Source of the DNA: Gemmataceae bacterium
GTDB taxonomy: Bacteria > Planctomycetota > Planctomycetia > Gemmatales > Gemmataceae
Assembly: GCA_901538445.1 (NCBI GenBank)
Contig: LR594584.1
Location: forward strand, 2,221,738-2,285,737
Reading direction: 5' to 3'
Length of the DNA stretch: 64,000 nt
In this document: positions 11,153 through 25,465 of the stretch, in pieces
Numbering within the stretch: the stretch's first letter is position 1
Layout of the letters: each line of letters starts with the position of its first letter
The notes under the pieces: model-generated
Told to the model about the DNA's origin: nothing
What the model saw: only the letters and a program-made list of their open reading frames with translations
The model's database searches: none
Program-made: the position numbers and the translations under genes

Positions 11153-11250
11153 GGGGCCGACGGACCAGCGGGTGGCGTCACACCACCCGTGACCCGCCGG
11201 CGGGGCCGACGGACCAGCGGGTGGCGTCACACCACCCGTGACCCGCCGGC
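11153..11250. repeat. 49-bp perfect tandem duplication at a gene's 3' end
   Basis: Two identical 49-bp units lie head to tail at 11153-11201 and 11202-11250. Each contains an internal inverted repeat, GGGTGG...CCACCC with a 7-base loop, and ends in CCGCCGGC. The second unit contains the stop codon and last codons of the gene ending at 11227; the first lies just downstream in the direction of transcription. Each hairpin may act in transcription termination or mRNA stability, but neither is followed by a run of T. Confidence 0.85.
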
Positions 11251-12372
11251 GCGGACGACGGAAGGAGCGAGCGCGGCAGGGTCGAGGCGGGTGCGGAGGG
11301 CCAGCAGCGCCTGGGCGACCGCGGGCGGGGTGTTCGCTTCGAGGTCGCCCGTCACCGGCTCGGCACTGCGGTACGCGGCCGCGGCCGCCTGAAGGGACGC
11401 GGCCCCGGACCACGCACCCGGACCGGGGCACTCGCGCAGGACCACCGCACGAGCGAACGACCCGACCGGATCGGACTCGCCCGCGAACCGGCGCGCGACC
11501 GCCCCCTCGGGGGTGAACAGGACGGCCGATTCGCCGTCGCACACCAGCCGGCCCGCCGTACCGTCCACGACGACGCCGGTCCCGATGCCTTCGGGCAACG
11601 GACCGGAGACGGCGGACTGCTCGAGGACCAAGGTGCGCGTGCCGAACGTGAAGACCGCGGCGGCCGACTCGGGCAGGGCGGCGGCGGGCTGGGGGCGTGA
11701 CGTGAACCCGGCAACGAACACCCGTTCGGGGCGGGCGTCGCCGAGCGCCCAGACGCCGAGGTCGAGCGCCCGCACCACGCGGGCCGACCACGCGGCCGAC
11801 CCGAACGGGGCGGCCGCGTCGCCCGGACCGCGGAGGCACACGGCCCGCACGGACCGCACCACCCCGATCGCCCCGGAGCGGACGGCTCCGAGCGCGTCTT
11901 GCACCGCCGTGTTTGAACGGTGCGAACACGCCACCGACGCCACACGCCCGTTCGCCCCGGCGACCGCGCGGAGTTCTGCAAGGTCATCCGACGCGTAGCC
12001 GCGGATCGGGTCGAGGTAGACGTCCTTCCCGTTCTGAAGGGCTGCGAAGGCGTAGCCCAGCGACCACCGGCCGGGCACCGACACGGCCACCGCATCGACG
12101 GCGGGCTCGGCCAGCCACCGAGACGCGGCCGCCTTCCAGTTGCTCGAAGCCCGGACCGACTTGTCCTTGACCCGGACGCCGGCAACCTCGCGAACGGCGA
12201 CCGCGGGGTGCCCGAGGAACCCGGCCGCCAGGCGCTCGCCCGCACGCCCCCGGGCCACGACTGCAACCCGGCACTGCGGAACAGCCCCCGTCGCACCCGA
12301 GCCACTCAAACCTGCTACGGCGGCCAACGCCGCGGAGACGCGAAAGAAGTCACGACGATCGGCTAAGGGCAT
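11227..12372 (-). CDS. Degenerate Gfo/Idh/MocA-like exported protein
   Basis: This 381-residue protein has a Tat-like leader (DRRDFFRVSAALAAVAGLSG) followed by a Rossmann-like domain. The arrangement resembles planctomycete Gfo/Idh/MocA oxidoreductases: CRVAVVARGRAGE at the nucleotide-binding position, VDAVAVSVPGRWS, then GKDVYLDPIRGYASDDLAELRAV where the family normally has a VY-x-EKP motif. The catalytic lysine of EKP is missing here (YLDP), and the first turn lacks the usual GxGxxG. The C-terminal beta-sheet domain is short and Ala-rich. It is therefore probably a non-catalytic paralogue or a decaying gene. The start at 12372 was chosen at the leader; an alternative ATG lies at 12384. Confidence 0.6.
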   Translation of the reverse strand: MPLADRRDFFRVSAALAAVAGLSGSGATGAVPQCRVAVVARGRAGERLAAGFLGHPAVAVREVAGVRVKDKSVRASSNWKAAASRWLAEPAVDAVAVSVPGRWSLGYAFAALQNGKDVYLDPIRGYASDDLAELRAVAGANGRVASVACSHRSNTAVQDALGAVRSGAIGVVRSVRAVCLRGPGDAAAPFGSAAWSARVVRALDLGVWALGDARPERVFVAGFTSRPQPAAALPESAAAVFTFGTRTLVLEQSAVSGPLPEGIGTGVVVDGTAGRLVCDGESAVLFTPEGAVARRFAGESDPVGSFARAVVLRECPGPGAWSGAASLQAAAAAYRSAEPVTGDLEANTPPAVAQALLALRTRLDPAALAPSVVRAGGSRVV

Positions 12373-12844
12373 AGTGAACCCCATCAAACAGTATGAAACC
12401 GGACATCGAGGAATGCTCGAAGCCAGCCACAATAATCAACTCACGACCGAATCAGCCGCCGACACGGTAATGTCCACGCATATTCAACTAATATCAATTA
12501 AAATATCAAATGCATTTCGTGTCGAGAGATGGCGACCCAGGTAAGCGATGCAACTTTGGTCAACGCAGGTGATATGCCGGTACACTGTACGGTCTAGGAA
12601 GCGGCCAAGTGCATGCGGTGCGTAGTCTGTAAGTTACCGTGGGGCATGCTGTTGCAAAATGATGATTCTTTGGTGAGGTTCGCTCTTGGTCTGTGCGGGC
12701 GAGTTGCGGCCGCTCGCAAGTTGGGCAATCGCTGTTACAAACTGCTATCGAAATCAACATGCAGCCAGCAGTCGAGATTCGAGTTCAAGAATCGAGCAAA
12801 TACCCCTTGCGTTCGTCCGCGGAACGAGTAATATTTATTTCGTA

Positions 12845-12904
12845 GCCGGACGAGGCGATCACAAGCCGGACGAGGTTACCTTTTGCCGGACGAGGCAAGT
12901 TTAA
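12845..12904 (+). repeat. Three-unit phased array: constant 11 nt plus variable 9 nt
   Basis: The 11-mer GCCGGACGAGG begins at 12845, 12865 and 12885, so the period is exactly 20 nt. The nine bases after each copy differ completely: CGATCACAA, TTACCTTTT and CAAGTTTAA. The last unit runs into the stem of a rho-independent terminator. Just upstream, at 12813-12819, TCGTCCG is the reverse complement of CGGACGA inside every copy, so an RNA could form alternative 7-bp pairings. Whether this is a small RNA, a set of protein-binding sites spaced about two helical turns apart, or an iteron-like element cannot be decided from sequence alone. Confidence 0.8.
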
Positions 12905-12934
12905 GGCCCGGGGAAACCCGGGCCTTCTTCTTTT
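12903..12934 (+). terminator. Canonical rho-independent terminator
   Basis: A perfect 10-bp stem (AAGGCCCGGG with CCCGGGCCTT) closes a GAAA tetraloop and is followed by CTTCTTTT. This is the best intrinsic terminator in the window. It points rightwards, yet no plus-strand protein gene lies upstream within several kilobases, which implies an unannotated transcript ending here. Confidence 0.85.
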
Positions 12935-13037: not shown

Positions 13038-14429
13038 ATGCCCGACCTGGCCGACGGCGAAACGACCGAGATGAAAGGGTCCGGGAAGAACCCGTACCGC
13101 ATCAAGAACAGCGGCGGCGTGTACTCCTGCACCTGCCCGGCGTGGTGCAACCAGTCGCTGCCGAGCAACGCCCGCACCTGCAAGCACATCCGCAAGCTCC
13201 GCGGCGACGCGGCCGAGGAGACCCGCCTCGCCACCGCCGGGCCGCTCGCCCCGCTCAAGCCCGCCGGGTCCGAGGAGGTCAAGGAGCTGCCCATCCTCCT
13301 CGCCAACGTCTGGACCGACGAGCACGACCCGACCGGGTGGTGGATGAGCGAGAAGCTCGACGGCGTGCGGGCGTACTGGGACGGCAAGCAGTTCCTCTCG
13401 CGCCGTAACAACATCTACCACGCCCCGGACTGGTTCACCGCCGGGCTCCCGCCGCACCCGCTCGACGGCGAGCTGTGGTTCGCACGCGGGCAGTTCCAGC
13501 CGGCGAGCGACATCGCCCGCAGTCAGGGCACGCCCGACCGGTGGAAGGGGCTCAAGTACCTCGTGTTCGACGCGCCCGACGCGAAGGGTCCGTTCGAGGA
13601 CCGACTCAAGTTCCTGCAAGACGGCGTCGGAAAGTGGAAGAACACCTACACCACGCTGCACGACCACGCCCACTGTACCGGGCTCGACCACCTGCTCGCG
13701 GAACTGGACCGCGTCGTCGCGCTGGGTGGCGAGGGGCTCATGCTCCGCAAGCCGCGGTCGGAGTACGAGCGGACGCGGTCGTCCACGCTGCTGAAGGTGA
13801 AGAAGTTCCTCGACTGCGAGGTGACGGTTTCCAGCTACGAGGCGGGCAAGGGCCGGCACAAGGGCCGGGTCGGCGCGCTGTGGGTGCGGCTGAGCAACGG
13901 GAAGGAGTGCAAGGTCGGCACCGGCCTGAAGGACAAGGACCGCGAGAACCCGCCCGCGGTCGGCAGCATCGTCACGGTGAAGTACCAGGAGCTGACGCCC
14001 GACGGGGTGCTGCGGTTCCCGGTGTACGTCGGCGTGCGGCCCGACGGCGACCCGAACCAGCCCGCGCCGACGCGCAAGCCGTCCGCAGCTCCCCCGGCCC
14101 CCGCACCGGTGAAGGCCGTCGCAGTGGAACCCGCGCCGGCCCCGAAACCCGTTCCCCAAGTGACCCCTGTTGTTCCCGTTACCAGTGGAGGATCGACGAT
14201 GGCAGCGACCGCGAAGCGGTACTTCGAGTTCATCGACGGCGACTCGAAGAAGTTCTGGGAGATCTGGATGGACGGCGCCGTGGTGACGACGTGCTGGGGC
14301 AAGATCGGTACCGCGGGCCAAACGAAGCCGAAGACGTTCCCCGACGAGGCGAAGGCGAAGAAGGAGTACGACAAGCTGCTCGCGGAGAAGACCGGCAAGG
14401 GCTACAGCGAGAAGCCGCGGCCGGCGTGA
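13038..14429 (+). CDS. SWIM zinc finger - ATP-dependent DNA ligase - WGR fusion protein
   Basis: This 463-residue protein has three modules. Residues 31-50 form a canonical SWIM finger (C-x-C-x14-C-x-H in SCTCPAW...CKH). Residues about 90-325 are an ATP-dependent DNA ligase core of the small bacterial type: motif I SEKLDGVRAYW with adenylated Lys106, LDGELWFARG, EGLMLRKP and LLKVKKF, followed by an OB-like domain ending in FPVYVGVR. A Pro/Ala linker (about 337-380) leads to a C-terminal WGR domain (YFEFIDGDSKKFWEIW, CWGKIGTAGQ) of the kind found in PARPs. Both added modules are nucleic-acid-binding in known proteins, so a role in strand-break repair is reasonable. GGGGAG precedes the start. 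Confidence 0.88.
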   Translation: MPDLADGETTEMKGSGKNPYRIKNSGGVYSCTCPAWCNQSLPSNARTCKHIRKLRGDAAEETRLATAGPLAPLKPAGSEEVKELPILLANVWTDEHDPTGWWMSEKLDGVRAYWDGKQFLSRRNNIYHAPDWFTAGLPPHPLDGELWFARGQFQPASDIARSQGTPDRWKGLKYLVFDAPDAKGPFEDRLKFLQDGVGKWKNTYTTLHDHAHCTGLDHLLAELDRVVALGGEGLMLRKPRSEYERTRSSTLLKVKKFLDCEVTVSSYEAGKGRHKGRVGALWVRLSNGKECKVGTGLKDKDRENPPAVGSIVTVKYQELTPDGVLRFPVYVGVRPDGDPNQPAPTRKPSAAPPAPAPVKAVAVEPAPAPKPVPQVTPVVPVTSGGSTMAATAKRYFEFIDGDSKKFWEIWMDGAVVTTCWGKIGTAGQTKPKTFPDEAKAKKEYDKLLAEKTGKGYSEKPRPA

Positions 14430-18726: not shown

Positions 18727-18771
18727 TTGTCGGCGGACGCGCGGCGCGAGTAGGATTTGGTGTCTCAGTTA

Positions 18772-18831
18772 GTGGGGCAGGCATTCTTGCCTGCCCGCGC
18801 TCGGAGGGGCAGGCAAGAATGCCTGCCCCAC
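18772..18831. repeat. Palindromic repeat, copy A
   Basis: A near-perfect inverted repeat: GTGGGGCAGGCATTCTTGCC on the left and its reverse complement on the right, separated by a short GC loop. It flanks the gene at 18855-19343 on its left; a second copy lies at 19348-19413 on the right. It resembles mobile REP/MITE-type intergenic palindromes common in Gemmata-like genomes. Confidence 0.85.
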
Positions 18832-18854
18832 CCCAGCTTGGTCAGGACGACGAC

Positions 18855-19343: not shown

Positions 19344-19347
19344 GGTG

Positions 19348-19413
19348 TGGTGGGGCAGACATTCTTGCCTGCCCCTCCCGGTCGGCGGGTAGGCAAGAAT
19401 GCCTGCCCCACCA
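19348..19413. repeat. Palindromic repeat, copy B
   Basis: Second copy of the palindrome seen at 18772-18831. The left arm TGGTGGGGCAGACATTCTTG and the right arm CAAGAATGCCTGCCCCACCA pair with one mismatch. It begins five bases after a stop codon and ends 32 bases before the next start. Confidence 0.85.
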
Positions 19414-19445
19414 AAGAGACGACCGCTCGGGAGTGGAGAACCGCC

Positions 19446-25020: not shown

Positions 25021-25341
25021 TCAGTGCCCTGCGGTGAGCTTCAATCCGACGATGCCGGCGACGATCAGGCCGGCGCACGCGAGTCGGGCCGCATTCGCCG
25101 GTTCGCCGAACAAGACGATGCCGAGAACCACCGTGCCGACCGCACCGACCCCGGTCCACACGGCGTAGGCCGTGCCGAGCGGGAGCGTGCGGAGCGCGAC
25201 GCCGAGCAGCGCCAGGCTGACGACCATCGACAGGACGGTCGCGACCGACGGCCACAGCCGCGTGAACCCGTGCGTGTACTTGAGGCCGACGGCCCACCCG
25301 ATCTCGAACAGGCCCGCCAAAACGAGGACGACCCATGCCAT
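25021..25341 (-). CDS. Small multidrug resistance (SMR) family transporter, SugE-like
   Basis: This 106-residue protein has four hydrophobic helices. The essential membrane glutamate is present in [15 protein letters not shown], and the signature [20 protein letters not shown] matches the SugE/Gdx branch, whose best-known members export guanidinium. No guanidine riboswitch was recognised upstream. Upstream lies a GCGTGGGG...CCCCACGC hairpin near 25389-25408. SMR proteins work as antiparallel dimers or heterodimers; no second SMR gene is adjacent, so a homodimer is likely. The start [13 protein letters not shown] was chosen as the usual family start. Confidence 0.87.
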
Positions 25342-25465
25342 AACGCACTCGTGCGTCGGGGCAGGGTCGTCCCTACCGAATTGTGTCTGGCGTGGGGTCG
25401 TCCCCACGCGGGTTGGTGCGGCATTCTACGCCCCCCGTCGCCGCCGGGACAAGTGCCGGGCCGCG

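What the first reader, a model, noticed from the sequence alone, without database searches (positions are those of the whole stretch)
12845..12934. Exactly 20-nt-phased constant/variable repeat array ending in a strong terminator, with no known gene upstream
Three copies of GCCGGACGAGG start exactly 20 nt apart, each followed by a different 9-nt segment, and the array runs straight into an intrinsic terminator (10-bp stem, GAAA loop, CTTCTTTT). A complementary heptamer (TCGTCCG, 12813-12819) upstream can pair with each repeat copy, so several mutually exclusive folds are possible. The constant/variable layout recalls an array of short recognition elements. No protein gene feeds this terminator. 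It could be a small regulatory RNA, an RNA that titrates a protein binding each repeated loop, or a DNA site array spaced about two helical turns. Seen directly: repeat, period, terminator, complementarity. Inferred: any function.
Basis: partly seen in the sequence, partly recalled or inferred. Interest (0 to 1): 0.75.

Follow-up and report, generated by a model that had tools for sequence, protein, structure and literature searches.

The report
Small RNA with repeated identical loops
This is probably a short (about 90-nucleotide) regulatory RNA of a Gemmata-type bacterium that shows the same six-letter loop (GGACGA) three times, kept in one related species with two loops, and it may soak up an RNA-binding protein; neither its transcription nor its partner has been shown.

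Summary
The array is real: three exact GCCGGACGAGG copies at 12845, 12865 and 12885, followed by an intrinsic terminator (12903-12926). It is the only such array in the window, and the only one before any of 43 strong terminators in 2.06 Mb of this genome. A syntenic relative (L047 = G015, same genus) has two copies at the same 20-nt phase and the terminator. The array is the only non-coding stretch conserved in a syntenic block whose proteins are mostly 55-75% identical. Each repeat is a small stem with the loop GGACGA; the "variable" nine bases are stem arms and linker, and one homologous pair changed A-U to U-A. Both loci have a sigma70-like promoter (TTGCG[T/G]-16-TANNAT) ending 9-10 nt before the first repeat, predicting an RNA of about 90 nt (about 75 in the relative). 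The upstream TCGTCCG heptamer then lies in the promoter spacer, is absent from the relative, and cannot act as a switch. Downstream genes differ, so this is a stand-alone sRNA rather than a leader. Best mechanism: multivalent loop recognition, most plausibly CsrA titration (six CsrA genes, no Hfq), but the preferred ANGGA context is absent. No other relative was found among about 300 class genomes.

The parts
12807..12812 (+). predicted -35 box TTGCGT
   Evidence: relative has TTGCGG at the same place, with the same 16-nt spacer
12829..12834 (+). predicted -10 box TAATAT; transcription would start at about 12841-12843
   Evidence: relative has TACCAT ending 9 nt before its first repeat (10 nt here)
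12813..12819 (+). TCGTCCG heptamer, inside the predicted promoter spacer; probably not transcribed and not conserved
12845..12855 (+). repeat copy 1 (GCC-GGACGA-GG); weak hairpin alone, predicted to pair with copy 2 flanks as GUAGCC/GGUUAC
12865..12875 (+). repeat copy 2; homologous to copy 1 of the relative
12885..12895 (+). repeat copy 3; hairpin UUUUGCC-GGACGA-GGCAAG
12903..12926 (+). intrinsic terminator stem-loop, T-rich tail to about 12934
   Evidence: terminator also in the relative
11227..12372 (-). divergent Gfo/Idh/MocA-like oxidoreductase gene; at E<=1e-30 found only in the same two genomes as the array

Best explanation
An independent small-RNA gene. A sigma70-type promoter at 12807-12834 drives a transcript of about 90 nt (about 12842-12934), made of three 20-nt modules that present the single-stranded hexamer GGACGA, and closed by an intrinsic terminator. 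The RNA works by multivalent recognition of the repeated loop. The most likely partner is one of the CsrA-type GGA-binding proteins, which the RNA would titrate as CsrB/RsmY-type RNAs do. Shown here: sequence, phasing, conservation in one relative, predicted fold, terminator. Inferred: transcription, protein partner, function. My confidence is about 0.75 for 'stand-alone structured sRNA' and about 0.3 for CsrA as the partner; the figure below is for an sRNA acting by multivalent loop binding to a protein.
For: A syntenic relative has the array and terminator at 80.5% identity over 77 nt, the only conserved non-coding stretch of the block. All five repeat copies keep GCCGGACGAGG, while the arms change and mostly still pair: at the homologous copy, A-U became U-A and G-U became G-C. 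Folding energy z is -3.8 in the window and -3.6 in the relative, with GGACGA unpaired at probability 0.84 or more in both. Promoters match in sequence, spacing and distance to the first repeat; chance is about 0.001 and 0.0007, though the pattern was chosen after looking. Downstream genes differ, so it is not a leader. The genome has six CsrA-family genes and no Hfq hit. GGA in a six-base loop, and GGA sites within the 10-63 nt that a CsrA dimer can bridge, suit CsrA (PMC7652899). No enrichment of loop complements at start codons, which speaks mildly against the base-pairing rival.
Against: No transcript evidence. Only two genomes carry it. CsrA prefers ANGGAN loops (PMC7652899); here the context is CCGGA, with GG at the 5' edge of the loop. 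Only three GGA loops (two in the relative) is few for a titrating RNA. Covariation rests on three rows and is not beyond shuffles (110 of 500). In the window, the array does not fold better than with shuffled arms (827 of 5000), although in the relative it does (19 of 5000). Copies 1 and 2 are predicted to fold with each other here, unlike in the relative.
Confidence: 0.45

Rival explanations
1. A base-pairing sRNA: each loop (GGACGA, or CCGGACGAGG when opened) is a seed for mRNAs holding UCGUCC, with several identical seeds raising avidity, as in the SmelA075/SmelA099 and LhrC type of sRNA.
For: Three hairpins with one constant loop and variable stems is the architecture described for the three-hairpin SmelA075 and four-hairpin SmelA099 families (PMC3927594). 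Loops are unpaired and fully conserved.
Against: TCGTCC and its neighbours are not enriched around predicted start codons in 2 Mb (38 seen, 45 expected). No Hfq gene found. A few specific targets cannot be excluded.
Confidence: 0.3
2. A DNA operator array: direct or inverted repeats about two helical turns apart bind a regulator, perhaps of the divergent oxidoreductase gene.
For: Phase of exactly 20 bp; TTGCC-N6-GGCAA is a perfect palindrome in the relative; array and divergent gene occur in the same two genomes.
Against: The non-palindromic centre is conserved rather than the arms; the array sits directly between a predicted promoter and a terminator in both species; distance to the divergent gene start differs (about 470 versus about 190 bp).
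Confidence: 0.12
3. A riboswitch or attenuator leader of the downstream + strand gene.
For: A structured RNA followed by a terminator about 100 nt before a + strand gene at 13038.
Against: Downstream genes are unrelated in the two species (a DNA ligase/WGR protein here, a short unnamed protein in L047). No Rfam family matches at its gathering score in this region.
Confidence: 0.06
4. A neutral tandem duplication next to a terminator, without function.
For: Found in only two genomes; copy number differs.
Against: The copies have stayed identical in both species while the rest of the intergenic DNA has no detectable similarity, and flanks diverged while pairing was mostly kept.
Confidence: 0.07

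Closest known systems
CsrB/CsrC, RsmX/Y/Z-type CsrA-titrating sRNAs
   Same: Repeated GGA in small hairpin loops; site spacing within the range a CsrA dimer can bridge; CsrA genes present in the genome
   Different: No ANGGA context; GGA at the 5' edge of the loop; three loops or fewer; no sequence relation
SmelA075 / SmelA099 sRNAs of Rhizobiales (CCUCCUCCC loops)
   Same: Three or four hairpins with a constant loop and variable stems
   Different: Loop is GGACGA, not an anti-Shine-Dalgarno sequence; different phylum; no Hfq gene found here
LhrC family of Listeria (repeated UCCC motifs; from my own knowledge, only title and abstract seen here, PMC4132741)
   Same: Redundant short motifs in one sRNA
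   Different: Motif here is G-rich rather than C-rich; no sequence relation
Guanidine-II (mini-ykkC) riboswitch, RF01068
   Same: Small hairpins with ACGA in the loop
   Different: Here C-G pairs close a GGACGA hexaloop, where mini-ykkC has ACGR tetraloops on G-C pairs (from my own knowledge; seen at 25362-25409); no Rfam hit; unrelated downstream genes

Membership tests
CsrA-titrating sRNA (CsrB/RsmZ type) | Multiple unpaired GGA motifs in hairpin loops | tested here: met
   Three GGACGA elements, unpaired at 0.84 or more; in the window two of them may lie in an internal loop instead of hairpin loops
CsrA-titrating sRNA (CsrB/RsmZ type) | ANGGA(N) context | tested here: not met
   Context is CCGGACGA in all five copies; consensus from PMC7652899
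CsrA-titrating sRNA (CsrB/RsmZ type) | CsrA encoded in the genome | tested here: met
   Six PF02599 matches over the cut-off; four translated
CsrA-titrating sRNA (CsrB/RsmZ type) | Binds CsrA | not testable with these tools
   Needs gel shift or CLIP
Guanidine-II riboswitch RF01068 | Matches the covariance model | tested here: not met
   No match at E<=1 in the region, while a true one is found at 25362-25409
Constant-loop multi-hairpin sRNA (SmelA075/SmelA099 type) | Three or more hairpins with identical loops and variable stems | tested here: inconclusive
   Clear hairpins in the relative (two); in the window copies 1 and 2 may fold together
Constant-loop multi-hairpin sRNA (SmelA075/SmelA099 type) | Loop motif CCUCCUCCC | tested here: not met
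   Loop is GGACGA
Intrinsic-terminator-ended sRNA gene | Own promoter and own terminator, no protein gene feeding it | tested here: inconclusive
   Terminator clear, promoter predicted in both species, transcription not tested

The most novel reading that the evidence does not exclude
A new planctomycete sRNA class in which 20-nt modules, each showing the same GGACGA loop, titrate a CsrA-type protein with a GGA context unlike the proteobacterial one. This would be a first RNA antagonist for the expanded CsrA set of Gemmata relatives.
Probability: 0.2. Interest if true: 0.65.

Novelty: new variant of a known kind. Interest (0 to 1): 0.42.

Why it matters
My literature searches found no described sRNA from Gemmata relatives (only open-licence papers are held). 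This genome has six CsrA genes and no Hfq hit, so how its post-transcriptional control works is open. A compact candidate with clear modules and a natural copy-number difference is easy to test.

Tried and rejected
Rfam: only sub-threshold chance hits in the region. Pattern search of 84,980 species: 52 loci, and L047 alone has an intrinsic terminator following the array; the few others with T-rich stretches downstream have 32-nt matches and no such terminator. Pattern with three mismatches in the order, and loop-only pattern in the family: chance matches. Covariance model over 298 class genomes: only the two known loci are significant; the next hits (E 0.004 and 0.011 per genome) are what 298 genomes give by chance and lack a terminator. 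DNA similarity in 95 family genomes: the other hits are similar terminator stems (beside tRNA-like sequence) or unrelated. Seed enrichment at start codons: none. Other arrays before terminators in 2.06 Mb: none comparable. Considered and rejected: leader peptide (a 20-nt period is not a multiple of 3 and no ORF is shared), and an upstream heptamer switch (heptamer lies in the predicted promoter spacer and is not conserved).

Full report
Observation. The three exact 11-mers and their 20-nt phase are as described, as is the terminator. Markov shuffles never gave a triple 11-mer (0 of 20,000), and no other equally phased triple exists in the window. In 2.06 Mb of this genome only this one of 43 strong terminators is preceded by such an array; one other has a two-copy 9-mer. 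The genome holds no other pair of the exact 11-mer at 18-22 nt start-to-start phase.

Conservation. A relative of the same genus (G015, contig PNKH01000048.1, locus L047) has two copies, again 20 nt apart, followed by a terminator. The two loci are syntenic over window 9.0-23.4 kb; in that block the array is the only conserved non-coding stretch that I could identify, 80.5% over 77 nt (the other short matches fall in coding frames or in a dispersed repeat). The neighbouring oxidoreductase is 60% identical. Window copies 2 and 3 correspond to the relative's copies 1 and 2. Among 95 family genomes both the array and the adjacent Gfo/Idh-like gene (E<=1e-30) are found only in these two. No further relatives were found with looser patterns, a loop-only pattern or a covariance model.

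Anatomy. Each repeat is a hairpin of the form (UU)GCC-GGACGA-GGC(AA); the 'variable' nine bases are outer stem arms plus a linker. In the relative both hairpins are clear (6 bp each), and shuffled arms rarely do as well (19 of 5000). In the window copy 3 forms its own hairpin, while copies 1 and 2 are predicted to pair with each other (GUAGCC/GGUUAC), leaving both GGACGA hexamers in an internal loop; the window's array is not significant against shuffled arms (827 of 5000). In both species the GGACGA hexamers are unpaired (0.84 or more). At the homologous copy the stem changed A-U to U-A and G-U to G-C, but three rows are too few for a firm covariation claim.

Transcription unit. TTGCGT-16 nt-TAATAT (12807-12834) ends 10 nt before copy 1; the relative has TTGCGG-16 nt-TACCAT ending 9 nt before its first copy. 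Chance for such a pair in each shuffled upstream region is about 0.001, but the criterion was set after looking, and the tool's stricter scan did not list it. If right, the RNA starts near 12842 and is about 90 nt, and the TCGTCCG heptamer is promoter spacer; the relative has no such heptamer there. Downstream genes differ between the species (a DNA ligase/WGR protein here; an unrelated short protein there), so it is not a cis leader.

Mechanism. The constant part is the loop and the changing part is the arms, which points to recognition of the loop. Two partners are plausible. CsrA: six family members in this genome, no Hfq match, GGA in a six-base loop, and a 20-nt phase within the range a CsrA dimer can bridge (10-63 nt, best above 18; PMC7652899); against it, the ANGGA context is missing. 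Base pairing: the SmelA075/SmelA099 precedent has three or four hairpins with a constant loop (PMC3927594); against it, no enrichment of the complement at start codons. I favour protein binding modestly. Function and transcription remain unproven.

Noticed in passing
window 25362-25409 (-): Guanidine-II riboswitch (46.8 bits) directly upstream of a small multidrug-resistance-like membrane protein (frame 25021-25407 -, ATG at about 25341), a known arrangement for guanidinium exporters; the protein family was not tested.
   Followed up: partly
G000 contig C3 (outside the window): Six CsrA-family genes in this one genome, and two to eight in each of 20 relatives searched: an expanded CsrA set.
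   Followed up: partly
window 18760-18833 and 19344-19420: A dispersed repeat in both orientations that also occurs in the relative's contig (23279-23355).
   Followed up: no
window 13038-14429 (+): A gene combining DNA ligase catalytic core and OB domains with a C-terminal WGR domain.
   Followed up: no
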